Below, in pieces: positions 19,401 to 59,467 of a DNA stretch of 64,000 nt. The first letter of the stretch is position 1. Each line of letters begins with the position of its first letter. A program made the position numbers and the translations under genes. The stretch spans positions 23,838,001-23,902,000 of the forward strand of contig NC_134025.1 of NCBI RefSeq assembly GCF_964204645.1. Direction: 5' to 3'. The notes beneath the pieces are model-generated. The model worked only from the letters and a program-made list of their open reading frames with translations, was not told the origin of the DNA and made no database searches. Source of the stretch: Tubulanus polymorphus (taxonomy: Eukaryota > Nemertea > Palaeonemertea > Tubulaniformes > Tubulanidae).

Positions 19401-22400
19401 GTCTTTGATAACCGCGTAAACCTACGATGTATTACTGTAAACCTTTTCTTATCTAGGCATTCAAATCAAAATGAAATACATTTTCAGCATTCCCCGACTA
19501 TTTTATGCGTAGGTTTACCGTAAAAACTCGTTTAAAATCGATAGACTAAAAAAAGTAATTTTCTTGGAAATAGTTTCATGTAGTCCTGTTTAATCAAAAT
19601 GATGATTTTTCTATAAGTTCCCATAGTAGTAGAGTTTTGATTTACGTATAACGTTTTGCTGTGGAAAATGAAATTTGAGACGATTGAGTGCTTTAAACTA
19701 ACAAAAACTGAAGTTTGCATCATAAAAATTAACACATTCAGTAATTAATGATTAACTGCATAATACCAGTAGATCTTTCATAGCTTTCACTATTTTGGCC
19801 ATTCATTCGCAATTATTCGCAAAAATTGGGGTATCAGCTGAAACTCATCTGATTTCTATTCATTTTGAAATACAAATGATGATAGGAAACATCACAATAG
19901 ATAGGATTACGATTAATACATGTTTCTGGTACATTGTTGTTCATATCTGCATGCTTAGATCCATAAGTAAAACCAAGATCTGTTCTTTGAGCTTTGACAG
20001 ACTATTTTTTTAGACAAAAAAGCTCATGGTGATTGTATATTTCACACTGTTAGGACCAGCACACTGCTGGTTAGCTCTATCTCTGTATATTTCAACACCT
20101 CACGTTCTGTGCATCATTTGCTTTACAGCGACAGCACAGTCAAAAAGAGAAAGCCACCTGCGCAACATTCGCCATCATCGGCGAGCCCCTCTCCACCCTC
20201 AGCACCCCCTTCATCATCGTCATACCCTGTCAATAATTACGATCAATATTTCGGCAGCGTATTTACCGACGAGATCGAAAATTCCGATGATTCCGATGAA
20301 ATTGATGATTTCACGAACAGGTAACGAAAAAAATAATTAACTGAGCAATCGATCGATCAATATATTTGTTATATTAATTTTTTGTAAGTACAAAATGCTA
20401 AGGGTCGATGATTGTTCAAAATGGAGACAAGAAATCTTCCGATTACTGATTTTTATTTAATTCGCTTCGAGTCCAGCATTATATAACCTTTGAATCATAA
20501 AGAGTTGCATGTTTTCAAACGATTAGTTCCCTCGTGAATTATTAATGCTACTAACAGATCATGCATGCGAAACGCTGAGCGTAGCAACTTTGTTCAGAAA
20601 ATGATCCAGACTAATGTAAATTTCACGCTGTATTTGTCTCTATTTAGATAATTCTCTTCACATTCTCTCCCGTTAAAGTTAAATCAGGTGATAGAAACTA
20701 GATTGTCTGTATGTTTGTTTTGTGTAGAAAAAAGGGATTTGATTTATTTATGGCGATGAAATTTGCTAAAAATTTGGCGAAACTGTTGAAACGTCTGAGA
20801 TGATATGATTCGATTTTTGTGGAATACCTGTTTCAAAAATTTTATTCATATTTCATTTTTTTTTTAGCCACGATGAAATGAATAGTAACCGAGATGCACA
20901 GTCCGATACGTCGAGTATATCACAAGTCAGTTACGAGCCGTCGCAACCCGTATTCCGAGGAATGTCGTCGGAGATCCCGGAATCTGTTGATGCCGTTGAC
21001 GGCGGAGTCATGCTAGTCTCAGCGAAACCAATTTCCGGTACTAGTAAGTTACATTTCTTGATATCTGTTTACTCAAAATGGTGGATAAAAGATTTTAGCC
21101 GAAACACATCCTCCCAGCTGGGATTCAAACCTGATGGCTCAACCACGGCACGAAACCCTGCCACACCCGACTGGGTGCGCAGGTACATGCATAGGTTTGC
21201 CACAAGAAAATTTGCAGCACCAATCAGATTGCTCATTGTATTATCGCTGAGGCAAGTTTCGTGGATAAACTAGAAATGGAAAAACCTGGGCTAAAATATA
21301 ACAGAATATCTGATTGGCTAATAATGACATAATGTAAGCTGCGCATGTGGCTGCGCACTCGGGCTAGTGTGGCAGGTTTTTGTATCATGATGAGTCTTAG
21401 GTTATCAGGATTGAATCCTTGCCGAGGGAGGATGACCAAAACACTGACATCAAAATATCTTATCTACAATAATATTCATCTGAACATTTTCTATGCTTTT
21501 TGCTTGTATAAGTATATTAGTATATATTACTTCAATAAGATATGTTATATCTCTGTGCATTTGAATTCCTGCTTCTTACTCATTTCTTGTGGTTTCGCTT
21601 TTGTCCGTAACTGCAATTGTAGCTGTGCGTTCTTTCAACAGGTTCTCCAAAGCTCAGTTCCTCCACACCTACCCGTCCTCAGAACAAAATTGGTAAATCG
21701 TTCTTGTCTAAACTGGCGAACAGTCTAGACACATCGGGTGATTCTAGTTCAGGCATCACATTGATATCCTCGAAACCGCTGGATACTGGATACTCAGGGT
21801 ACAGAAACTCAGGTAGCGATCATGTCAGTGAACTGAAGTGATATTTTGATGAATATACACTGTACATTGAAGCTAAGAGTGTACTGCTTTTTAGGCATTA
21901 GTTTTATTAGTAATTTAACAGAAATCGCTATCTTTTCTACTCTTGCTATCATTTATTCTGATGCATTGCTAATGGACAGTTTTGAAAATCTTCATATAAC
22001 TTTCCTTCGATCTAAAAGAAACTAAATGAACTATTATTATCATCATTCAACTATTATTATCATCATGCTTGCATCGACTATTTACAATGTATTTCATGTG
22101 ACAATACCATATTTTTCAGATTCATTGATAAGCAGTGGTGATACGTTAAACAGTAGCAATGTTGGATTAGTACGAGAATATGATGATGATAATGTACATG
22201 CTCAATCATATAACTTCGCCTCAATGTCCCTTACCTCAGAAACTGTCTCAGTAAGTATTGAATAAATTAACTTAACTCAACTCGATGGATGGATGGACAT
22301 TCATAACAGTAATGTTTGGGTTTGTTTTCAGGAGTCATCGGCACGGAAGGGTAGCAATCAGTGGCAGTCAGCTAAACCTGTACATGAATGGACGATAGAG

Positions 22401-22951
22401 CAAGTTTGTCATTGGCTTATTATGCATGAACTGGATCACTATAAAGATATATTTATTCATGAAAATATCGATGGGTCCAAACTATTGTTAATCGATGGTG
22501 CTCGTTTAAAGGTGATTACTACGGTTTTGTTTCTCGTTGCCCTACTCTTGCCTCAAATTTCCTATGTTCTTCTGGGAAAATTACCAAAACGCCGTAGAGA
22601 TTTGAGAAATTATGATTAACTAAATGATCGTTAGTTATTGTATTCTTAATTGCGGCGAGTTCAATTTCAGTTTTAGTTCCCGTTGCAAAATGCAATCGTT
22701 TCTGGAATGTCGAAATTCCCAAATGTCGCCTGCAAAAAAATCAATAATACTAACTCGGAAAAGCTTTTGTTCTTCAGACTATGGGAATAGTGAATAGCAA
22801 TGATCGAAATGCTTTCAAACGAAAACTTAAAGAGCTGAAGAGTAACATGGAGAAAGAGAAGAAACGAATGGAGAAAGAAGCGAAAAAAGACAACAGCTCA
22901 ATGAGTAGTAGCATTAAAAAGAAGAAAATGTTCACGTTCGGAAAGTCATGA
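4446..22951 (+). CDS. PPP1R9A: Neurabin/spinophilin (PP1 regulatory subunit 9), 5'-partial
   Basis: Scaffold that targets protein phosphatase 1 to F-actin and synaptic or junctional sites. Exons: 4446-4573, 6711-6847, 9629-9761, 10510-10630, 11955-12059, 12674-12899, 13307-13537, 13787-13915, 14386-14415, 15646-15767, 16091-16187, 16274-16406, 17382-17456, 18205-18374, 18957-19030, 19295-19312 (microexon), 20129-20320, 20868-21043, 21642-21812, 22120-22250, 22332-22511, 22778-22951 with TGA. All junctions are GT-AG and in phase, giving about 983 residues. In order: acidic segment, PP1-docking motif KIRF near residue 80, the spacer typical of the family, PDZ, a Q/E/R-rich coiled coil, a second coiled coil containing [15 protein letters not shown], a serine-rich linker, a SAM domain, and a basic tail. 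The SAM domain matches neurabin-1 rather than vertebrate spinophilin, which lacks it; invertebrates usually have one gene. The actin-binding N-terminus is not seen. Confidence 0.95.
5657..5899. mobile_element. Fold-back (MITE-like) element, GGGGCC termini
   Basis: About 243 bp lying in a neurabin intron. It begins GGGGCCAGTTGCACAG and ends with the inverse, CTGTGCAACTGGGCCCC. The inner parts are also complementary (arms around AGACCAGCCTTAAATTG and its inverse), so nearly the whole element can form one hairpin. No coding capacity. A clear target duplication was not seen. Confidence 0.75.
6711..6847 (+). other. Neurabin exon carrying the PP1-docking motif
   Basis: This exon ends with [18 protein letters not shown] fits the RVxF-type docking consensus for the PP1 catalytic subunit and sits where vertebrate neurabin and spinophilin have RKIHF. 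The next exon (9629-9761) continues with [18 protein letters not shown], equivalent to the second PP1 contact segment of spinophilin. Family knowledge supplies the function; the motif and its position are read directly. Confidence 0.9.
7787..8105. repeat. Dispersed repeat, copy 1
   Basis: This intronic stretch shares long blocks, in inverse orientation, with 38170-38490. Shared features are GGCC-rich GGGCCAAACAGG segments, a CAATGCTTAAACAAA block (read here as its complement), and an end with GTGATCRC. Non-coding, probably a non-autonomous transposon family. Confidence 0.6.
10510..12737 (+). other. PDZ domain of neurabin, split over three exons
   Basis: Exons 10510-10630, 11955-12059 and the start of 12674-12899 encode one PDZ domain. 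It starts [16 protein letters not shown] (carboxylate-binding loop and strand B), continues [21 protein letters not shown], and closes with CFLIGREK. The fold is complete. In the family this domain lies directly after the PP1-binding segment and contacts PP1's C-terminal groove. Confidence 0.93.
10733..11043. mobile_element. Non-autonomous DNA transposon, copy A
   Basis: About 311 bp. It starts CATCCTCCCTCGGCAGGG and ends with the inverse, CGGGCGAGGATG. It is flanked on both sides by the same 9 bases, GGTTAAGTT (10724-10732 and 11044-11052), a target-site duplication. No ORF. A second copy lies at 21107-21434. Nine-base duplications with CA...TG ends fit Mutator-like elements, though other superfamilies are possible. 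Terminal B-box-like sequence (GGATTCAATCC) makes a tRNA-derived origin an alternative. Confidence 0.8.
14087..14252. repeat. Tandem duplication, 83 bp x 2
   Basis: Two head-to-tail 83-bp copies (14087-14169 and 14170-14252) that I read as identical, in a neurabin intron. No exon is involved. Confidence 0.9.
15836..15995. mobile_element. Long fold-back element
   Basis: Two arms of about 74 bp (15836-15909 and 15922-15995) are inverse copies with a 12-bp loop between them. The inner stem reads GTAGCTTCAT...ATGAAGCTAC. It lies between neurabin exons 15646-15767 and 16091-16187. Non-coding; MITE-like. Confidence 0.8.
19295..19312 (+). other. 18-nt in-frame microexon of neurabin
   Basis: The segment lies between a TTGTGTAG acceptor and a GTACGT donor and keeps the frame between exons 18957-19030 and 20129-20320. 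With it, the protein reads HDRFLEDDDDS; without it, HDSDS. The flanking exons also join in frame without it, so it could be a cassette exon. Transcript data are needed to show use. Confidence 0.55.
21107..21434. mobile_element. Non-autonomous DNA transposon, copy B
   Basis: Same family as 10733-11043: it starts CATCCTCCCAGCTGGG and ends CCGAGGGAGGATG. The flanking 9-mers are GCCGAAACA and ACCAAAACA, which differ at two positions, so this is the older insertion or the duplication has decayed. Confidence 0.75.
22332..22511 (+). other. SAM domain exon of neurabin
   Basis: This exon encodes most of a sterile alpha motif: it has [18 protein letters not shown], then [19 protein letters not shown], the order typical of SAM helices 1-4. 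The last exon completes the helix and adds a lysine-rich coiled tail that stops at 22951. Confidence 0.9.
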
Positions 22952-31900: not shown

Positions 31901-34900
31901 CACGCGCCAAAGTAAAAGCAAACAACCCCTCAATCAGAATCCATCATCGGGATTATGGATTGCTCGAGATCAAAGGCGCCAAATATATTTTCCGCTGGTT
32001 GACGGCACGATCCACCGCTGATTTCGTTAAACTTTCATAAGTCACAGACAACACCAGTGCCTGCGTCAGGGTTCTGACTTCACAACCCTCTATTACAGAA
32101 TATATTACTAGATAAGGTTTTCCTTGCTTTTGGAGATAAGACTGGCCTGCATTTCACCACTTATACTTATGTACGTCAAATTCTTCCCGTCTTGCCATAC
32201 ACCATTGGGATAGAGCGGTTTATTGTTCTGGTACTGTATTTACAACAGGTAAAATCAACTTCTTCAGTACTGATTAGGTTTTCGAAGCCCCAAGCCTAGA
32301 ATAAAAGTAAACCACAACATATGCCCACAGTGCCTTTCTCTAAACCTAATCAAAGCATTTTCGTATGAAAGCACAAAATGATTTCTTTTTCTTTTACTAA
32401 GAATAGTCTATAAGACATGGATACCAGTAGATATGTTGTCTTGTACTCCGTGATTTTTACGCAATTTTTACGCAAACCAGCTTGGTTCATTCAAATTTGA
32501 AGGAACATCGATAGTCTCTTGTCCAAAATACTCGTGAAAGCTTAAATTAGGCAAGTCGAAACTTGGAAATTATAGAAATGCAATAAAAGTTTGTGTGATT
32601 AGCAGCTCCTTTGAACAGGCGAAGTCGCCAATCTTTGATTTATCTTATCCAATAAATCAGGAGTGGGATTTGCACGGATCCATCATTCTGTAACCATAAT
32701 TATTGATACCGGTCAGTTAAATCTCTCCAGAATATTATGCTATCTTATACGAATGACAGTTCCATTCCGTGTAGCAAACAGATCATCAAAATTCAACTCA
32801 ACAACGACAAAAAAGTCTTGTGTTTTTCTTGTATTTGCATTAAAATCACCGCAAACGCATTGCTATCTCCATCATTTAAAGAACAAAGGTATGCATTGAT
32901 CTAGATATCAAACAGACTGGCATGTTCGTAAATGCGCTAGTCTCTAGTAAGACCAAATCAATCCATCTGTACATTTTTAGTTATGAATATGTTTCGAAGA
33001 ATAGCCCATATTCATGAATTCTTGAATTTAAGGGAATAACTTCACTGACCCAAGAGGAGTAGATGTATCGAAATGTGTCGTCACGCGCATTGATGATATG
33101 TACCCACATTGTGATGCAAAATTCCAGGTGAGTGGAACTATATGGCCTAGAAATTTTCCGGGGTTCGCTATGCCATAGACGTATAAACTAGATTATACGT
33201 CCATGACTATACCCAGATTGTATCGTGATCCATGCAAAAATTGAAGACCAGCTTCCGAAATCTATCGGATATTTTCCGTCGAGTTAACTCGTGTTCGACA
33301 TTTTGAAAATGTTAATTGGTTGAAAGCATACGGCGGAGATTTAGATGCACGAAAAATGAAAGCCGTGTCCTTTCCACGATTTGTTTGATGTAGATAAAGG
33401 AATCTAATTAAAGAATTAATGTTTGTTCATTAACTTTGCACATATTTCATTTTCTAAACTGTATATTTAGTGCATTCGACTCGATTTATTTCAGTGGATG
33501 CGTTTACATTGGAAAAGCGATACGTGTTACGGCGAAAATGGCGTAGACGGTTCCGACTGCTCATTCCTGCGATATCTGAGCGAGGTATGATCATCTGCGG
33601 TGCTAATATACCTTTCCCTCTTGACCGATAAACTCTCCTTGATGGGTACTCATGATATCAGTTGGAAAAACAAGCTATGTTCTGTTGTTGTTACTGAATC
33701 ATCTTGTACGTCTGGTTTTGACATGTCTGTAATCCGAGCCTTCGTCGATATCGGACTTTGTATCCGTCGGGATTATCACGATAGCTTGGTCCATTTGTTG
33801 AAGCGTTTATAATTGTTATTGCATTATCGATATCCAATACGCAAGGCTTTATGGAGAGATTTCTGAAAATCAACAGTTTGGTTTATGGCATCTTCAAATA
33901 TATATATTCATATGTTGACAGGTTGAAAACTGGTGTCCACATTTGCCAGGTCGACAAACTGTTATGGCTAACAAGTCACACGCAGATTCCAAATGGCATA
34001 AAAAGGTAAACAAAATTGATCGCGATGCTGACGTTAACAACTTGATATGCTTGAAAAATGTATCCGTACATTTATTTGCTGCAACGTTATACCTATTTGC
34101 AAACGGAGAAGTAACATATTGTTGTTGGTAGTAGAAAGGTAAAATGTGGTTACCTTGACCTTCACAGGTTTATGGTGGCATTCTTCTGAAGACCGATTCG
34201 TTGTTGTTTTGACTAAGGAATTTTTTTTATAATGAATGAAATGGGGAATTGTTCTTTTTATATGTTTGATTGATTGATTGATTTTGATTTGAATATTGTC
34301 CCTTATAAACCCACCACGCAACGGAACAGGTGGTTTGACATTTGAATTGGAAAAAGACGGCCTCCTTGATCATTCTAAACCAAGACATACCTAAGTCAGG
34401 ATAACTAATAGATGTAATACGTTACGATTCTCTCTTTTCTAGGGCTGGGCTGCTTTCTTGTATAAGCTAACTGTTGCTTCAAAGCAGTCCTTCATTTAAT
34501 TTTGTTACATTTATAATTTATTTTCTTATTCATTGATTCTGTAAAAAAATTTACTTGAAATTAATCATATATCATATATCATGCGTATATTATACGTAAT
34601 AAATGAATGGTCCTCAGTAAACTAGTCGATAGTGTCGATATTTGTTTACTGCTTCACGTCCGTTTGTGTCAAGATGTATATATAAGTATACGAGGTTATG
34701 ACTCCAAATGTGGAGATTTTGCGAGCTATTTATTCAATATACGATGAGTATTGCCTCGGCAGAAAAGTAAATAGTTGTTATCATTGTACATGTAACAATT
34801 TCCTCATTACATCTAAACCCTCCGAAACAATTTTACAAGGCTTTCATAGACATAGACATAGACATAGACATAGACATAGTTCTTGATAGTTTTAAATTGT

Positions 34901-37900
34901 ATCCATTTTGGATTAATTTCTATCAGGCTAGTTTGAGACTTGAAATAGAACCATTGATGAGTTTACTCAAGGATCCGGTGTCTGCTCATAAGAACTACGA
35001 TTGGATGAGATTGCGTATCCGTCGTATGTGGCCAAATTGGGCAGCTGCTGCTGAAAATCTCGGGCGAAAGCAAGATCTACAAAACAGAAGGCAGATGAAG
35101 GTAACAGATTGCTGGGAAATTTTTTTCCGATTACTTTGATGTAATCAAACTTGTTTTTCTCCATTTTTTCTAATCAAAACAGTTCTTGATAATTTGATTT
35201 TTTGGTCGTGAAAATACGCGGAGGCCAGCACGCGATTTCAAATAAGTGCGAGTTATAAATTTCTAGATAAATCATTAATGTTCTGTCGGAGAATATACAT
35301 TTTCATAAATTTCCTTTTTTATCGATGAGTGGGGCAACAATTTTCAGAATCCATGCTGTAACTCCCAGTGAGGGGTTTGTCATTGAACAAGGACAGAAAC
35401 GATTTTTCGATATCTTAGTAATTCGTTTTATGTGAAAGCCAGCACGTGTTCTCTATAAGCCTGAGTTATAGATTTCCTTAACTGTTCTGTCGGAGAATAT
35501 GCATTTTCATAATTTCATTTTTTACCAATGAGTAGAGGCAATGATTATGAGAATCCATGCTGTGACTTTTCAGTGAGGGGTTTGTTAATATATGTAATAT
35601 TCTAAAGGGTTTGTCATTGAACGAGGACAGAAACGATTTTTCTAAATTGTGTTCACTACCTGTTTTTTTGCTATGGTATGTTTATCTTTTTTAAGGTCTT
35701 TATGCATTTAGGATTGCTCACAAGACAAGCGGGCCTAAAATTTGCTGAATCTGCATTTAAAGGTGAAAGAATTAATGAAATGTAGCGATATTTCAGCACC
35801 AAACCATCACAACGATGGGTGGAATATTTTGATTATTGTATTATTGATACTTTTAGGTGGACCATTAGGAGAATTAGTTCAATGGAGTGATTTGATCACA
35901 GCTTTGTACATATTAGGACATAATCTAACCATTTCTAGTGAAATAGAGCAGCTATCTGGGTATTGCTTCTTGTTTCTTTTTAGTTTTACAATAAGTATCC
36001 GAACATACATATTTCATCATCTATAGTTCGATGTGAATGTTTGTAAAGTGCAAAAAGATTATACTGCGAACAAAATAATGAATTTGTCTTATTATTTGAC
36101 ATAATCTTGTGAATTATGCGCAAGTGCTTTAGTTGTCCTTCGATCTACATCTACGATTCTTGCGAATCTAAATGCCTTCAAAACATTATTTCAGGTATAT
36201 CATGAAGTATAAGTATGGTGCTCACACGTGTCCACCGCCTAGTGAAGACAGACTAGACCTGTTATACACTGATATACTCGGTTTAAAGCAAATTAAAAGA
36301 TATAATAAGAAACAGTACACATTCCTTCGGTCAGTTTATCTTTTTTATTGAATGGGATTTTTTTGTATATCGTCGAAATTGTTTTTAAATTTAGTATAAA
36401 ATTGGTTTTGGCAACAAGCAATAATTATTCATCAATATTTACATCAATATCATAGATATTGTTTTGTTAAATTGTTGTGATAAATTGTTGTGCAATTCTT
36501 ATTTCAGATGTGCTTTGCGAGTATTGGACTCATTTGGAACAGAACCACAATTCAACTATGACATGTACGCGAAGAAGCACCGATTAAAAAGCGATTGGGG
36601 AAAACACAACTTACTCCCGAAACAGTTCAACACGATGTTCCGTAAGGACGCTTCAATCCTCTTCTGATGTAGATAATAGATACTAATTTATTCATTAGTT
36701 ACAGCATCACATATTGAATCCATAGATCGGATGCACTTACTGAACTAAAATGCTTCTCGAGTTTATTACTCGTCGGATGTTACGACAGGGAATAGTAAAC
36801 CCGGAAAAGTCGTTTGGTGCTTTAAATAGGTTAAGAGGCAAATCACCCTCTTGCATCTATCGACGAGGATCGGTTTCTTCTTTACCTATGCTTGAGTATA
36901 CAGATAATGATAAGAACATTTTTGTTCGAGAATGTGAATTCCGAGCAAGTGTATCTACTTCGAAGCTTCTCTTATAACTTCTGCATGAATTCGTACTATG
37001 TCAAATGCATCATCAGCGTCGGTGAAGAGTGGATTTTCTAGTTCACAATTATACGCGACTTCTTTATCGATACTGAGTTCGTTGACACTTCTCGACTAAT
37101 CATCTCGACAAGCCCAAGTGTAATAAAAGACAGGCTTTTATCTGATGATATATTTTATGTACATATTTACGTCATTCTAGCTCACACTCCTGACAATACA
37201 TTTCTTGGTTTTGTTGTCGAACGGCCGCCGAACAATTCTCGAATCAATTCCATCGCACGACGCAACCGTGCGCTAGTCTACGGCAAAAACGACTACATGT
37301 GGTATGGAAAGGCTGGCTATCTAAATATTGTTAAAGACTATTCGGAAATTCACGGAACAGTTGCTCGAGGTCGCAAAGGAAAGAACGATGTAGCGAATGT
37401 TCCGAAATACGTGAAAAACCACGGAATTCTTGTCGGTGAAGAATTAACTGTATTGTTGCATACATCAAAGGTACTTACCGTATATATTTTCAGGCTAATC
37501 AGCCGATTTTCTAGCCTCAGATTTCTACCCCAAAAAATCATGGTCGACTTATTGGACGGATACGATCTGACCTAAAAAATCATTTCCCAATCTATGTCAC
37601 TTAGATGCTCCCAAAAATCATCAAAATCAAGAAGAGTGGTCCATATTTATTTACGTAGATTGTATGTATTATAGTGTCTATGAATTGCAATATTATACTT
37701 TGGTTTTATATAAGATAAGAATATTAGTTAAATTTAGACTTCAGAGTATAAAATCAACAGGTACAACTAGTAGTTAAACATGGAAATATGGTGAAAAATT
37801 CATCGTAAAATTCGCTGAAAAAGAATTAAACTTCAATCGAATCATTTGTCATAAAAAAATGTACTATGCGTTTCCAAAATGAATTGTTTGCTTTACATTC

Positions 37901-51215: not shown

Positions 51216-54200
51216 TTAAACGTCCGGTTTCTTCAGGCCAGAAACGACCGGTAGTCTCGCGACTCGAATCCGCGTTTTCGGCAGATGTCCTTTTAACGTA
51301 CTAGCTAGTTCTTTCGCGCTTTTCAGCTCGATCGAATTGCTATCCGGCGTCATGAACGGCACCGATTTCGCATCGGCGCCGCTCACTTCATCGTTGTTTT
51401 TCATCGTACACCATTCGAGAAATTTCAAACTTTTCAAATCTTTCACGGCGTTCATGGCATTCGTGTTCATGACAGCAGCCTGACGAAAAAAAAAACGCGC
51501 ACAGTTTTAAAATCTTGTAGGCTAAGTAGTTATCATAGAAGTATTAGATCTGATTATGATAAAACGTACTTGTGAGCGTGTATCCGGCCACAACGACAGG
51601 CGCTTCAGATTTGCCATATTGGGTAGAACTTTCGCCAATGTGTCGGGCAGTTGGAAAACCATCAGCTGAAGTTGTTCGAGTCTAACAAAACAATAGATAA
51701 ACAGTTGTGCATCTGTACATACCAGCCAGTGAAAAATCCCCAAAACGGGGGGTTTCTATCAAATTTCATGAACCGATTCAACTTACTGGGTCATCTTCGA
51801 CAAACCATCGGCAAGTCCTAAATCCGGATGACAGCCGCCGTTTTCAAGTCGTAACCGCCTCAATTTAGTCAGCTTACCAAGACATTTATACGTCTGGAAA
51901 CATTTCAGAGAATGATTTAGTTCAATCAGCATTAATTGTTACATGTAGTTAACTTTGCGTTAAAAACTCAGTTGTACAAAAATCCAGCCATCAGATTACC
52001 AAATAACTAATCACAACTCAGTAACAGCAGTAACAGTGGTTCCCCACCCCCTCGTTGGGCATTAAAACCCTGTATTCCTCAATATGACCTACAATACCAA
52101 TGGCTTTAGATAGGCAGGCGTACATCTTGATGGGAAACATTAGTTTACGACTGGCCTTACTATGAGTAGACAGATCTCTGTCGACCCACAAAGATTACAG
52201 GCGATTCTCTAGAACTCTGGTTTGTTAGGTACGCCGCACTGCGATTTCATAGTCGTTGCCTGATATCATCATTTGACAGGAATCGGGCCTTGCGATATCG
52301 TTTAAATTTTATGACGTTATTCATATAGCTAAGAAATACCAACCTCGGCCGTCCAAGAATCGCAGTCACCGACTTCTAATTCCTCTAAATTCGTGAGAGA
52401 AGCGATAAAACCAAACTCGCAAGCGGCGATGTCTTTTAGAGTCGTCATCGACTGAAAAGATCACAAATCACCAATGATAATTTTTGGTTTCGAGAAACCT
52501 TAACCGCAGGAGTGATGTACAATCCGTAAGAACTTACAAGTTTCCGTAGTTGTTTTAATGCGCTCAGGCGTGTCATACCAGCTGAGACACTGAATGCTGG
52601 CAGCACTAGCCCACATATGCCGCGTAGTCTAAGTTCTTCTAAATGAACGAGTTGGCTAAATTTGCCCATGTCCAGTTTGGTAACAGTCGACCTGAAATGA
52701 AAACAAAGTATATGCAGTATTTTAGAACAGATTGTTTTAAGAAAATTTACATGCTTACGACGATCGGTTATTGAAAATTAGCTTATTGAGATCGCCCTCG
52801 AGAACTTACCACATCTGAGGCTCCGTGAAAACATCGGTAATCCACTCCGCAGTGAGAACCTTTAAATTTACCAGCTTATCGGATACAGCGTGGAGAATAC
52901 TCGCTGGACACTGTCCAAAGTGGAAACATTTCAAAAATCGCATTTGCTCAAGAACAGCAGTCATTTGATGCCACGTTCGATTTCTGTCATCGGCATGATG
53001 AGCACCGCGCAAATCCTGAATTGAAAATAACAGTGGAACCAAACATTTTCTAGAGATGAACATTGTGCGCAGAAAATAAGTCACGTGACCCAGCTAGGTC
53101 GAATTATAGGATTCTGTCATCAGATTACCAAATAACAAATCACGTGCAGTAAATAAAAGTGAACCTCGATCGTACTTGACGATTGGGCATCGACTGCCCT
53201 GTACTCCTCTGATCAAACTTGATTCCATCAACTTCAGCGAACCAAGACGCCCATGTCAGAGGAGGATTTAGTTTACGACTGGCCTTACGATGAGTAGACA
53301 GATCTCTGTCGACTCACCAAGATTACAGACGATTTGTTTTTACTCTGGTTTATATGAACACAGTACTGCAAGTTCATCAATTAGCCATATCATCATCATT
53401 TGACAGATTTCCATAAACGACAAAGAAATTAAAATTCTATGAACTATTATTTCACGAAGGCTTAAATCAGTTTCGAGGTCATAGTGAAACTCACCAGAGT
53501 ATGAGTCTGCATGCGTTCCAGGAATGAAGATGCAATCGCCCAGTCAGTCACATGGCAATCTTTCAACATCACTGTTTGCCACTGTTGGAAAAACAAATAG
53601 GTATTCATTACACATAAGTGTCATAACAGCTGAAGCTTCAGGCTATAGATCAATTCTTTTTTTTTCACCAATGAATATATTGATTAAAGCTGTTCACATA
53701 AAAATTATCATCCATATGCCATCAGTTTACAACGTACTCAAGGACTGATAATTGTAACATCAGAGTAAATCAGCATCTTGATCTCATTATGAACTGAATA
53801 AAATCTAAGCAAGTAGCATCGAATGATCATTACAATAATCATATAGCATCAGATTTTCAACAGAATAATAACTTACTAATGACGGTTCAAGAGCCACTCT
53901 ACGCCAACGCTTACAAACTCTAGTTATCCTATAAACAACATAAAATTCAGGAATAAACATGTGTAATTGATTTTAGTTGTCAGCATCTGTTTTTGTTTCA
54001 TTCTTCAACAAGAACGAAGACGTCAGGGTCCCTGGCTATGGATCATTCTTTCCTGGAGGATATAAGGAGTTGGGAGTTTTCAAGGAGTTTAAAGGAGAAA
54101 ATCTCAAATTTTGACGAAGCGCCCGTATCACTTTCATATCCCTGTAGAATCCTTTTAAGTCGGTACTGTTTATCTTGGTAAACCCGTAATTTAGTGGTTG

Positions 54201-57200
54201 GGTGAGCAAATTTTTATCCTTAACCCTACCTAAACTTAGTTTCTAATTTGGTAACCATCTAATTGGATAAAAAAGAAAAATCAAGGACTCAACTTTATCG
54301 ATTTAGGGTAGTCTACAACTACAAATAAGAGACAAAAACTCATAATTGCCTATTCCTCAAAATTGAAGGAGTTTGGGCACTTTGTTCAAATTAAAGAAGT
54401 TTCGAGCACCTTTTAAAGCATTTTGCACTTCGAAGGTGATTTTAAGGAATCAACAAGTCGTAGGAACCCCGAACTACGATAAGTTATGTTCCTACCTTAA
54501 TAAGTCGGGAATCGACAAGTAGGAAAAGATCTGTAACATGCAGTCGAAACCGCTATCCAATTTATTCACAAAGCATAACGATGGCTTGATATTTTTGTCG
54601 ATTATCGGTTGTGACGCTTTACTGTCCGTAGTAGATTTAGATGAATCTATAGTTGAGATACGCGGCGGCGTCGGAGTCACGTGGCTAGTAGGCGCGCTGC
54701 TAACATCCTTAGTAACAACATTGTTAACATCCTTAGGCGTCTTTTCAGAGTTCGACGCAGGTAGCTGACCCGTTAAAATTGTCTTCGGTGCGCTCTTCAA
54801 CGAGGAACTGTTGACCGACAGATCGAAACGCGGCGGCACGCGCACGTTCACGTCGATCGTTTTATTCGACGGCGTCGCCGGCAACGTGTTCGCCGGTAGA
54901 AATATTTTGATACCGTCGCCAGTCTGCACGAAGCACGAAGGGTTTACGGTCAACGCTTGGCCGTTTATTTTCAGAGCGAGCGGCTCGGTAAGATTCAATT
55001 TCGAGATAACGTGCGATGGCAGTGTCAACAATTGTCCGCCTTTAGTTTCGACCACCGGTTGTTGCGGAGCGCCACCCTTCACTATAGCAATACCCGGTCG
55101 AGTCGAGCCTTTGAGATTCCCCGCAGCTCGTTGTAGAGGCGGCGGTCCGGCGATATTCTGCGTGTGTTTCACCTGCGCTACAGGTGTCATCGGTCGCAAT
55201 TTAGGCAACGGTGGCAATATTTGACGAACCACCGAAATCGGGTTGGTTTTAGGTTGTAGCTTCGGTAATCCAAGCGTTTTCGGTGAAATAATTGGCGCCG
55301 TCGTTTTCGACTTCTCCAATAGGCATTTCTGAAATCAGATATGTCAATATGTAAGTCTTAAGGAACTCAGAACAGACACGACCAAAACAATAGTTATTTT
55401 CATTTTATCATTAGCGTGCTACGGTCAGACTAGGCGAATTTCTTCGATGAATAATTCACTGTATATTTCGCCTGCGAGACGAATTCAGTGCGACAACTGA
55501 TTTTTCACCCAATAACTCGGTTTTCACGACACTGATTGGGTAAAATAATTCAGGTCTCAACTATATTCATTTCTAGACATAGTCTACTACTGTACAACTA
55601 CTAACATTTCTAATTGCCTATTTCTCAAAATTGACGGAGTTTCAGGCACTTTGCTCAAATAAGAGCAGTTTTAACCACCTTGAAAAGCATTTTCTATTTG
55701 AAGGGAATTTTTACGGAATCAAGGAGTCATTGTAGGGTCCCTGAATATGGCTATAAACGATACGCCGAGTAAATTCGCCTAGTCTATCACGGGATTTACC
55801 GGGCAAACAAACGACGTCGTTTGCTGTGATGTTTTAGCACATTTCGGGTGATAAAGGCAGAGACAGATAGAACACTGCAGCGACGGAGGAACGTTATCCA
55901 TTCCTGGGCATTCCAATGAACACGGTTTCCAATGATCCTCGATCCTGAAATAAGACAAAAAAACATCTTTCTTCACTATAATGTGAATCTACATCATGTA
56001 TATGACATCTCAAAATGGAGAACTCTGCATCTTCCGTAATGAATTGATTCTCGATGTTGCGCAAATTTGTTTGACTTACTTAGAATAATGAAGGTATTTC
56101 GTAACTTTTGATGGAATATCCCCGTCTCCGATAGATTCACTCGCCCGTCGTTTCAGAATAAGTCCGCTGGTCGATGATGCTATTTTCTCAGCGCGGCGCA
56201 CCGCTTCACTTTTAAACTTCCTATTCGGCGGTAACTTCGGTTTGAATACGCCTTTCGACGAATCTTTCTCGCTCGATTTCGGGGTCTTCACTTTTTCGTT
56301 GGGCGTTTTTACTTTAGCGTTGCCGGTGTGTGTTTTATCGTTCACTTTCTGTCCGGGAGATGTCTTCTTACGCGCTGCCATTAACGGCGAGCTAACTTTT
56401 GATTTTCCCGCATTACGAACCAACTCGAATGGCTCCTTATACACAGGCGCGCGAGCAAATGTAAAGTTTTTCGCGGTTAAAGTTGTATCGTTCGTTTTGG
56501 CCACTAAAATAATGATATAAAGACACAAAAAGTTTGAGAACGTTCAAGAAAAAATCATCACTGTCTAAAGATTTTTTAATACAGCAATACTCACGAAATT
56601 CATTAACCTGTACCATAGAACGCTGAAAACAAATTGATGGAAATAATCAAATTTGAATCTGTTTTGATTTGTCTGTCTGACATTTTAATGATTACCGGTA
56701 TTAGTGAGATTTTTTTTCAATACAGCTGGGTAACTTTTGTGAATAATTATGAAATTTGTAATCAGCTCATAACTGCTGGTCTGTTATGATTTTTTTTTTT
56801 AAAGTAATGTAGGAGGCCAGCTGGATCAACTTTTAAGCTCAGCAGAAATGAGAACAAGGAACCGGGTATCAATTTCATAAAGCCTAAACTCACAAGCTTC
56901 TTTCCATTAGGATTGAAGTAATATGTATCCATTTGTTTCTTGCTGCCATCGTACGCGTTTCGAACAACAATTTCCCTACCCCAACCTGAAATACAGATTC
57001 AGATCAAAAATCTTAAAACGACGGATCATCGCAGAAAATTCATTAAAATAACAAAACAATAAGTTACCTAACGAAAAAGGTTTTGCAAACGCTTCTAGCT
57101 CTTCTTTAGAAAATTCTTTCTGAACTGAAAATAGATCGAAATAAATTGTTTACGACTGATAAACATAATTCAACAGTTTAGGGGGAATGCAAATCGAATC

Positions 57201-58261
57201 AAAGGCCCAAGATATAAAACCGTACCTTTATTTTTGAACAGACCAGGTGATTTAAGGTCGACGGGTTTCCCGGAAGCCGTCCGCCGTTTCTTCTTCTTGT
57301 TATTTTTCTTCGGGTGAACGGTGAGCGCGCGGTCGTCCATCGACGGACAATAATCGTCGTCGGAATAGTTATCTTCGCCGATCTCGTCGCCGGGGTCGTC
57401 TTTATCGTCGGTTTCCACGGCGGTGGGTATCACTTTCTGAACGTGTTCGCCCGTCAGCGGACATATTACGTAATCGGCGCCGTCGTCATCGGCGACGACG
57501 GGGTCTTCGTGTTCGTTATCCGACTTATCGTCCGCAATGTCCTCGTCGTCGACGACCCTCGATACGAATTTCTGTTTGCGCTTTTTCGCGCCCATCACTT
57601 TCACCTCGTTCGTCTGTTTAGCGGGCTCCGGTACGTCCTCGTCGATAACCATTTTATCGTCGTCGCTATCATCGACGTGTGTATCGTCGTCTTTCAGCGA
57701 TGAAGACGGACCGATTTTTATGACTAATTTAGGTTCGTTCTCGGATGTTTCTTCATCGGGTTTCGGGTCGCTATTCTCCTCTTCTACGCTCGTATTGACC
57801 TCCATTTCTTCAGACGTATCGTGTTCGTTTTCTTTATTATCGTCGTTTTCGTCGACATTCTCTTTACTCAGATCTTGTTCTTTGCTTTCCGGATTTTCCT
57901 CGTCAACTTTTGAGGTTTTCGTCTCATCGTCAACAAGTGTCGCATCGGTCCTTATTTCTGACTTTTCCTCTTCTACATTATTTTTCTCTTCTGTCGATGC
58001 CTCATTCTCTTCATCTATCTCTTTCATTTGTTCTTTCGATTCGTCATCATTTGAACTTATGCTGCGATCATGTTCGGGTATATCAGAATCCTCTTCTTTG
58101 ACGGCTGGCCCATCGTTCTCAAGCTCGTCAGATTTTTCAACGTTTTCCACCTCATCCCCAACATCTTCGAGTTCATCCTCATTTTCGCTGAGATTATCAG
58201 TCGGATTTTCGGATTGAAGAGGTTCAAAGCCCATGAATAACCCATCACCAGGGTTATCCAT
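51216..58261 (-). CDS. MBD-PHD-F-box-LRR protein
   Basis: Probable chromatin-associated F-box protein; no gene name recognised. Minus-strand exons: 58261-57226, 57124-57068, 56985-56894, 56622-56595, 56503-56080, 55944-55800, 55328-54496, 53928-53877, 53581-53495, 53015-52810, 52691-52538, 52451-52344, 51893-51787, 51681-51570, 51479-51216; all in phase, 1234 residues. In order: a very acidic D/E/S-rich segment (1-320) ending in KKNNKKKKRR; a methyl-CpG-binding domain (about 364-425); a basic linker; a PHD finger (about 552-597); a long Pro/Thr/Ser linker; an F-box (about 858-895); then leucine-rich repeats to the end. F-box proteins couple substrates to SKP1-CUL1 ligases. The order resembles FBXL19 and KDM2A/B, which carry a CXXC finger where the MBD lies here. 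The start ATG 58261 is the first in its exon; an upstream exon is possible. Confidence 0.9.
51989..52280. repeat. Dispersed intronic repeat, copy 1
   Basis: Shares CAGATTACCAAATAAC, TTTACGACTGGCCTTAC, GAGTAGACAGATCTCTGTCG and ATCATCATTTGACAG blocks, in the same order and orientation, with 53117-53415. Both lie in introns of the F-box gene. Confidence 0.75.
53117..53415. repeat. Dispersed intronic repeat, copy 2
   Basis: Second copy of the family at 51989-52280, about 1.1 kb away in another intron of the same gene. No coding capacity. Confidence 0.75.
53877..54560 (-). other. F-box of the MBD-PHD protein
   Basis: The end of exon 55328-54496 and exon 53928-53877 join as MLQIFSYLSIPDLLRITRVC, followed by KRWRRVALEPSL, a clear F-box (L--IF-YL---DL-R---VCK-W). 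The next exon starts WQTVMLKDCHVTDWA, the beginning of the leucine-rich repeats, as in FBXL proteins. Confidence 0.9.
54333..54480. repeat. Intronic repeat, copy 1
   Basis: Shares AATTGCCTATTYCTCAAAAT, GCATTTTGCACTTCGAAGG-like and GGAATCAA blocks in order with 55600-55748, in the flanking intron of the F-box gene. Confidence 0.65.
55600..55748. repeat. Intronic repeat, copy 2
   Basis: Second copy of the repeat at 54333-54480, same orientation, between the PHD exon and the long linker exon. Confidence 0.65.
55795..55944 (-). other. PHD finger of the F-box protein
   Basis: This exon plus the first codons of the next gives C-x3-C, then CSIC, then H-x2-C (YHPKC) and finally CPKC, where CPKC is completed across the splice junction to 55328. 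This is the C4HC3 spacing of a PHD zinc finger, with x3 instead of x2 in the first pair. Confidence 0.8.
56503..57124 (-). other. Methyl-CpG-binding domain of the F-box protein
   Basis: Exons 57124-57068, 56985-56894 and 56622-56595, continued in 56503-56080, join in phase to give GWGREIVVRNAYDGSKKQMD, then TYYFNPNGKKLRSMVQVNEF, then a tail with LTAKNFTFAR. This is the MBD pattern: W-R-----R---G---K-D-YY--P-GKK-RS---V--YL, with the basic DNA-facing strand and the tyrosine pair in place. Whether the residues contacting 5-methylcytosine are all kept needs an alignment. Confidence 0.85.
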
Positions 58262-58671: not shown

Positions 58672-59467
58672 AGGGACACCATACCCAGTTGAGGAGTGGT
58701 TTTTAATGTTTAACAACCTGACAATTTCAATATCCGATGCCCCCAATGAACATAAACTGTAACAAAAAACCTTGAAAATTACCAAAATCATAGAACATGT
58801 CATTAATTATAATTTTGCAATTGATTGTGGCAACATAATATGCCTAGATACCAATATATATTTATATGGAAATACTGAGTTATTCGGCAATTCAACGCCC
58901 CCTGGTGACGATACACAAAAACCAATGACCTTGAAACTCACCACAATTATAGGACATGTCATGAGCTATAACTTTGCAATTGATTGTGGTTACAAATTAA
59001 AATATGCAGCGCAGCCTACCAATATAAATAGATTAATTGTATATGATTCAATATACACTCCCTCTCTGGTGGCAAGAACAATATGGAAGATCTCAATTTT
59101 ACTGAAAAATGGCAAACCATTAGGAATTACCGGTTGAAAAATCCATGCCAAAATTGACCTTTTTGAAAAAAAAAAAGATTAGAGGATGGCCATTTTGAGC
59201 CTATCGACAATTTTTCTAATGCTGTGGGCTACAACCTTAAGAGTATCTTCAAATATTCCATTGTGTAAAAATGCCGATTTCGGTAAACAACAAAGGCCGC
59301 TTGTTTCCGGCCAGGTCAGCTTTGGAGATGGAAATGTGTCTAGGGTAGATACATATATCGACATCCAGACAATCCACTGAAGCATCTTCCCCTGGATACC
59401 GTCTATGGATGCACTAAAAGTGAATGCAATAGCCCGCTGGGGCTTTCTTTAGTCCAAAGCGGGTCAA
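58672..59467. repeat. Interspersed repeat family, copy 1
   Basis: Contains two internal repeats (58763-58832 and 58917-58993) with AACTTTGCAATTGATTGTGG-type blocks, and an end with GTGTCTAGGGTAGATACAT and a GC-rich AATAGCCCGC...AAAGCGGG hairpin. The same blocks recur at 60652-61117. Confidence 0.65.

What the first reader, a model, noticed from the sequence alone, without database searches (positions are those of the whole stretch)
51216..58261. F-box/LRR protein with a methyl-CpG-binding domain in place of a CXXC finger
Fifteen exons, all in phase, join MBD, PHD, F-box and LRR into one 1234-residue protein. Known CXXC-PHD-F-box-LRR proteins (FBXL19, KDM2A/B) read unmethylated CpG and link chromatin to SKP1-CUL1 ligases or Polycomb. 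Here an MBD sits where the CXXC would be. If it binds methyl-CpG, this protein would bring a ubiquitin-ligase scaffold to methylated rather than unmethylated DNA. I do not recognise this order in any vertebrate gene.
Basis: partly seen in the sequence, partly recalled or inferred. Interest (0 to 1): 0.85.

Follow-up and report, generated by a model that had tools for sequence, protein, structure and literature searches.

The report
MBD–PHD–F-box–LRR chromatin protein gene
An invertebrate-type genome carries one gene that appears to join a methylated-DNA reader to an F-box/leucine-rich-repeat adaptor of the protein-degradation machinery, a pairing not found in the literature searched here.

Summary
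The gene is as described: 15 exons, minus strand 58261..51216, all GT-AG, 1234 residues. Pfam finds MBD (1.6e-12) and F-box (1.9e-13) above cut-off; LRRs below cut-off but clear; the PHD-like finger far below it (10.3 bits) though its eight zinc ligands are present. The last PHD cysteine and the start of the F-box share one 833-bp exon, so a split there would cost the PHD a ligand. The MBD keeps both arginine fingers, the aspartate and the tyrosine of methyl-CpG recognition, and the genome has a DNMT1. No second copy was found. "KDM2/FBXL19 with MBD in place of CXXC" is not supported as descent: the genome has its own KDM2, and the LRRs match it no better than shuffles; only the weak PHD signal points that way. 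Two introns also hold U85 scaRNA copies on the coding strand. Most likely: a nuclear protein that places an SKP1-binding F-box/LRR module on methylated CpG. No transcript, binding or ligase data were available, and no other animal genome could be searched.

The parts
57226..58261 (-). exon 1, aa 1-345: acidic N-terminus (33% D/E) with basic clusters KKRK (226) and KKKKRR (322)
   Evidence: open frame, codon score +139 bits, best of 3 sense frames
57068..57124 (-). exon 2, start of MBD
   Evidence: GT-AG, in phase; Pfam MBD 360-423
56894..56985 (-). exon 3, core of MBD (R373, D384, Y386)
56595..56622 (-). exon 4, 28-bp exon that opens with the second arginine finger R396
   Evidence: codon score negative
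56080..56503 (-). exon 5, end of MBD and basic linker
55800..55944 (-). exon 6, PHD-like zinc finger C554 C558 C570 C573 H578 C581 C593
   Evidence: Pfam PHD_4 only 10.3 bits
54496..55328 (-). exon 7, last PHD cysteine C596, linker, start of F-box
   Evidence: one open frame joins PHD end and F-box start
53877..53928 (-). exon 8, middle of F-box
   Evidence: codon score not best frame
53495..53581 (-). exon 9, end of F-box
52810..53015 (-). exon 10, first LRRs
52538..52691 (-). exon 11, LRRs
52344..52451 (-). exon 12, LRRs
51787..51893 (-). exon 13, LRRs
51570..51681 (-). exon 14, LRRs
51216..51479 (-). exon 15, C-terminus and stop TAA
53115..53404 (-). U85 scaRNA copy inside intron 9
   Evidence: Rfam RF01296, 68.6 bits (cut-off 41), E 3.2e-15
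51986..52277 (-). U85 scaRNA copy inside intron 12
   Evidence: Rfam RF01296, 71.4 bits (cut-off 41), E 5.1e-16

Best explanation
A single-copy animal gene encodes a nuclear chromatin adaptor. The MBD docks on methylated CpG, the PHD-like finger adds a histone or protein contact, and the C-terminal F-box binds SKP1 while the LRR arc selects a partner. The protein would thus bring an SKP1 module, either a CUL1 ubiquitin ligase or, as reported for FBXL19, SKP1 without CUL1, to methylated gene bodies or repeats. Shown here: gene structure, domain order, the mCpG-contact residues, a DNMT1 in the same genome. Inferred: expression, nuclear location, mCpG binding, SKP1 binding, ligase activity, targets.
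For: 15-exon in-phase model with good splice sites and codon scores. MBD and F-box above Pfam cut-offs. Best PDB match of the MBD is MBD2, 3.8e-6; the two positions at which the chains of 7mwm and 7mwk differ by R to K from the first MBD2 chain are both arginine here. D384 and Y386 are kept, while the aligned BAZ2B chain has E and A, and the genome's own BAZ2-like and SETDB loci have I, at those of the two that line up. PMC5240623 (passages) names two arginines and a tyrosine as the critical residues. F-box nearest to SKP2 in the PDB, 1.6e-8. DNMT1 present. Exon 7 holds both C596 and the F-box start.
Against: No transcript, protein or binding data. PHD is below every cut-off. The MBD loop has a one-residue insertion against MBD2. 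The residues alone do not suffice: the same paper says MBD4 keeps the tyrosine but turns it away and is much less selective. The gene's exons are CpG-rich (CpG o/e 1.58, window 1.08), so methylation here may be sparse. Only the DNMT1 locus matched the DNA-methylase model, no DNMT2 or DNMT3, though exon splitting could hide them. FBXL19 purifications contained SKP1 but not CUL1 (PMC5997449, passages), so an F-box does not prove a ligase.
Confidence: 0.55

Rival explanations
1. Same gene, but the MBD acts as a general DNA or protein-binding fold (as in BAZ2 TAM domains or MBD3) and methylation is not read; the protein is an ordinary FBXL adaptor held on chromatin.
For: The extension after the MBD (LTxxNFTF) resembles the own-genome BAZ2-like locus and human BAZ2B; high CpG o/e around the gene.
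Against: D384 and Y386 are kept, whereas the aligned BAZ2B chain has E and A there; both arginine fingers kept.
Confidence: 0.26
2. A true KDM2/FBXL19 relative that lost CXXC (and JmjC) and gained an MBD.
For: Same order PHD, F-box, LRR; F-box 43% identical over 40 columns to own KDM2 and PHD similarity z 5.5; the only PHD model with any signal, PHD_4 at 10.3 bits, is the one that own KDM2 matches at 79 bits; KDM2B and KDM2A appear in the PDB list at 7.4e-5 and 2.8e-4 over F-box plus LRR.
Against: With the LRRs alone KDM2 is not among the 60 PDB sequences shown of 81; LRR against own KDM2 z 1.63, 36 of 500 shuffles as good; six loci rank above KDM2, the sixth by 0.4 bit (five genes if the L016/L017 pair counts once); KDM2 is not among the 14 genome matches at E 0.01.
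Confidence: 0.1
3. Two neighbouring genes (MBD or MBD-PHD, and an F-box/LRR gene) joined only on paper.
For: No transcripts available; intron 6 is 471 bp and intron 5 separates MBD from PHD; exon 7 has a methionine at residue 641, upstream of the F-box, that could start a separate protein.
Against: The PHD needs C596 of exon 7; the F-box is spread over exons 7-9; exon 5 runs open from the MBD to a strong donor 135 bp before exon 6; phases match throughout.
Confidence: 0.07

Closest known systems
FBXL19 (CXXC-PHD-F-box-LRR) and KDM2A/B (JmjC-CXXC-PHD-F-box-LRR)
   Same: DNA-reading domain, PHD, F-box and LRR in that order
   Different: MBD instead of CXXC, no JmjC, LRRs not recognisably KDM2-like, PHD atypical (first pair C-x3-C); a separate KDM2 exists in the genome
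MBD2/3, MeCP2 and MBD4 methyl-CpG readers
   Same: MBD with R, D, Y, R contact residues
   Different: no MBD2/3 C-terminal or glycosylase family in the Pfam scan; carries F-box/LRR
BAZ2A/B (TAM/MBD plus PHD)
   Same: MBD with a C-terminal NFTF-type extension and a PHD-like finger on one chain
   Different: no DDT or bromodomain in the Pfam scan; F-box/LRR instead; D and Y of the mCpG contact kept
Other FBXL proteins, such as L025 in the same genome (FBXL14-like by recall)
   Same: F-box followed by LRRs; best match elsewhere in the genome
   Different: Pfam finds only F-box and LRRs in the 427-aa frame of L025; the whole gene of L025 was not assembled, and the other FBXL loci were not scanned for MBD or PHD

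Membership tests
MBD methyl-CpG reader | Pfam MBD above curated cut-off | tested here: met
   47.3 bits against 21
MBD methyl-CpG reader | two arginine fingers, tyrosine and aspartate of the mCpG contact | tested here: met
   R373, D384, Y386, R396
MBD methyl-CpG reader | selective binding of methylated CpG | not testable with these tools
   needs a binding assay
FBXL (F-box/LRR) proteins | F-box above curated cut-off | tested here: met
   F-box-like 50.4 bits against 24.3; F-box 33.7 against 20.5
FBXL (F-box/LRR) proteins | C-terminal LRRs | tested here: inconclusive
   LRR_14 4e-8 but 32.8 bits against 40; PDB LRR matches; collinear with FBXL locus L025
SCF ubiquitin ligase adaptor | SKP1 and CUL1 binding | not testable with these tools
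   none
KDM2/FBXL19 | CXXC zinc finger | tested here: not met
   no zf-CXXC in the Pfam scan of the whole protein
KDM2/FBXL19 | JmjC domain (KDM2 only) | tested here: not met
   absent from the Pfam scan
KDM2/FBXL19 | KDM2-type LRR sequence | tested here: not met
   z 1.63 against own KDM2; not among the 60 of 81 PDB sequences shown for LRR alone; with the F-box included KDM2B and KDM2A do appear
KDM2/FBXL19 | PHD finger | tested here: inconclusive
   eight ligands present, z 5.5 to own KDM2 PHD, PHD_4 10.3 bits against 30.6
MBD2/3 | MBD2/3 C-terminal domain | tested here: not met
   not in the Pfam scan; the genome's MBD2/3-like exon is elsewhere, L004
BAZ2 | DDT and bromodomain | tested here: not met
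   not in the Pfam scan

The most novel reading that the evidence does not exclude
A hitherto unnamed reader class: an SKP1 adaptor aimed by an MBD at methylated CpG, the counterpart of FBXL19/KDM2, which are aimed by CXXC at unmethylated CpG, arisen independently and working beside a normal KDM2, so that one genome has SKP1 modules for both states of CpG.
Probability: 0.4. Interest if true: 0.8.

Novelty: new variant of a known kind. Interest (0 to 1): 0.55.

Why it matters
What invertebrate gene-body methylation does, and who reads it, is largely open; the annelid catalogues seen here name MBD1/2/3 and MBD4 as readers (PMC8330077, PMC11292947; passages). A methyl-CpG reader tied to an F-box/LRR would give a concrete, testable reader with a link to protein turnover at methylated genes.

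Tried and rejected
Rejected: a chance chain of frames (domain hits, splice scores and codon scores agree). Rejected as main reading: KDM2/FBXL19 descent. In one search I scored 17 of the 30 F-box loci fetched; the row for L041 was read from the wrong place (51 aa, no F-box) and means nothing. In the CXXC search (5 matches) L009 was not identified and L012 has three stops inside and was set aside.

Led nowhere: the viral-contig scan (two 25-residue matches, taken as chance and left out). Paper searches for the architecture: searches found none; one search found 94 papers (25 listed), 19 found 4, 43 found 6, 52 found 3, 70 found 30 (15 listed), 78 found 4; no title or start of abstract shown describes MBD with F-box/LRR. 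By find in full text, F-box occurs 0 times in PMC5240623, PMC9476566, PMC5433704 and PMC8330077 and MBD 0 times in the FBXL review PMC7729025; PMC11292947 was read for MBD passages only, PMC4053861 and PMC5997449 for other points. Roloff 2003 (id recalled) and two de Mendoza 2019 papers are not held, and are the likeliest places for an earlier description. The genome-wide count of U85 copies (RF01296) was asked 15 times and never answered.

One search was an incomplete filing.
Full report
The DNMT1, SETDB, BAZ2-like, MBD2/3-like and KDM2 genes found in it (below) are those of an animal; the species is not identified.

Observation. All 14 acceptors are within the best 4.3% of the other AGs in the gene; 11 of 14 donors are within the best 5.4% of the other GTs, the rest at 10-19%. 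Codon scores trained on the other exons favour the model frame over the other two sense frames in 14 of 15 exons; exon 8 fails, exons 3, 4, 8 and 9 score below zero, and in exons 4 and 8 an antisense frame scores higher.

Domains. Pfam places MBD at 360-423 (1.6e-12) and F-box-like at 857-894 (1.9e-13), both above curated cut-offs. LRR_14 reaches 4e-8 but not its cut-off, and PHD_4 only 10.3 bits. The PHD-like finger has the eight ligands C554 C558 C570 C573 H578 C581 C593 C596; its best PDB match is 0.028, to a flavorubredoxin, with PHD chains at 0.079 and above. C593 is in exon 6 and C596 in exon 7; exon 7 also opens the F-box, which ends in exon 9. Splitting PHD from F-box would cost the PHD its last cysteine. 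A separate F-box protein could still start at the methionine at residue 641 in exon 7.

The MBD. Its best PDB matches are MBD2 chains (3.8e-6), with BAZ2B, MeCP2 and MBD4 after them. The alignment keeps R373, D384, Y386 and R396. Of the five alignments printed, two MBD2 chains (7mwm, 7mwk) differ from the first by R to K at exactly the R373 and R396 positions; I take these to be finger mutants. The aligned BAZ2B chain has E and A at the D384 and Y386 positions. PMC5240623 (passages) states that two arginines and a tyrosine are the critical residues; MBD3, with phenylalanine, and MBD4, which turns its tyrosine away, are much less selective. So the residues permit methyl-CpG reading but do not prove it. 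The second arginine finger opens a 28-bp exon; skipping that exon would remove it and shift the frame.

The F-box/LRR part. The F-box is nearest to SKP2 in the PDB (1.6e-8); KDM2B and KDM2A follow over F-box plus LRR (7.4e-5 and 2.8e-4). With the LRRs alone KDM2 is not among the 60 shown of 81 sequences. The genome has its own KDM2: CXXC by Pfam, PHD_4 at 79 bits, F-box by Pfam about 2 kb further on (L040), LRRs in the same exon, and upstream a JmjC exon piece at 20.3 bits, E 7.9e-4, below its cut-off of 24. Against it the window's F-box aligns well (43% over 40 columns), but the LRR part does not (z 1.63; 36 of 500 shuffles as good), while the PHD does (z 5.5, 0 of 500; against the CXXC1-like PHD z 2.7, 6 of 500). 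Pfam F-box-like finds 45 exons in the genome, a lower bound; 30 were fetched. In a tblastn of the protein against 41 of the 43 loci then held (L001 and L002 left out) the best is L025 (48 bits over 858-1072), then L018, L017, L016, L014 and L020, then KDM2 (37.0 bits, 0.4 behind L020). L025 also leads among the 17 ORFs scored (z 22.3; KDM2 9.2, eleventh). Searched genome-wide, the F-box/LRR part finds 14 matches at E 0.01: nine of its own exons, L025, and four F-box loci; KDM2 is not among them. The MBD part finds only three of its own exons at E 0.1; this search does not reach the other MBD genes either, so it excludes close copies only. The likeness to FBXL19/KDM2 is thus one of order and perhaps of PHD, not of demonstrable descent of the F-box/LRR.

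Methylation context. The genome holds a DNMT1 at C7:2.92 Mb, named by recall from its catalytic motifs and a CXXC exon about 5 kb upstream. No second DNA-methylase locus passed (2 matches of 6 candidates, one locus); DNMT2 and DNMT3 were not seen, which may be due to exon splitting. Other MBD exons found are SETDB (L003), MBD2/3-like (L004) and BAZ2-like (L005), named by recall. CpG o/e is 1.08 for the window, 1.58 for the gene's exons and 0.88 for its introns; the gene itself is not CpG-depleted.

Intronic RNAs. Rfam finds two matches in the whole window at gathering scores, both U85 (RF01296; 71.4 and 68.6 bits, cut-off 41), in introns 12 and 9, same strand as the gene. The two share a stretch of 46 bases with one mismatch. 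U85 is called highly conserved in a study of fly and human (PMC4053861, passages). That both lie within predicted introns on the coding strand also supports those introns.

Mechanism. The best reading is a nuclear adaptor that sets an SKP1-binding F-box/LRR module on methylated CpG. FBXL19 is the nearest working analogue; there SKP1 was recovered but not CUL1, and CDK-Mediator was the partner (PMC5997449, passages). Hence scaffold and ligase roles both stay open.

Novelty. Eight literature searches for the architecture (two of them listed only part of their papers) showed no description of it. Annelid and snail studies, seen as passages, name MBD1/2/3 or MBD2/3 and, in some annelids, MBD4. No eukaryote sequence other than G000 and the PDB chains could be searched, so orthologues in databases under no name are quite possible. 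I call it a new variant of a known kind.

Noticed in passing
window 53404..53115 and 52277..51986 (minus): Two U85 scaRNA copies in introns 9 and 12 of the same gene; the gene would be a double host for the RNA that guides U5 snRNA modification (guide role recalled).
   Followed up: partly
window 34774-35136 and 37045-37572 (plus): Exons of a glycosyltransferase family 18 (MGAT5-type, name recalled) gene, Pfam PF15024 2.2e-7 and 3.1e-30.
   Followed up: no
window 22269-22616 (plus): SAM-domain exon, Pfam SAM_2 5.3e-9.
   Followed up: no
window 58763-59137 (plus) and L011 from base 91: Short reading frames containing a sequence like TLKLTTIIxHVMSYNFxIDCG, twice within this window frame and once on another contig, looking like an interspersed repeat.
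   Followed up: no
window 56622..56595: A 28-bp exon carries the second arginine finger of the MBD; skipping it would remove that contact and shift the frame.
   Followed up: no
L016 and L017 (G000 C6:9496483 and C6:9573627): Two F-box loci 77 kb apart with identical scores and frame lengths, possibly a recent duplication or an assembly duplicate.
   Followed up: no
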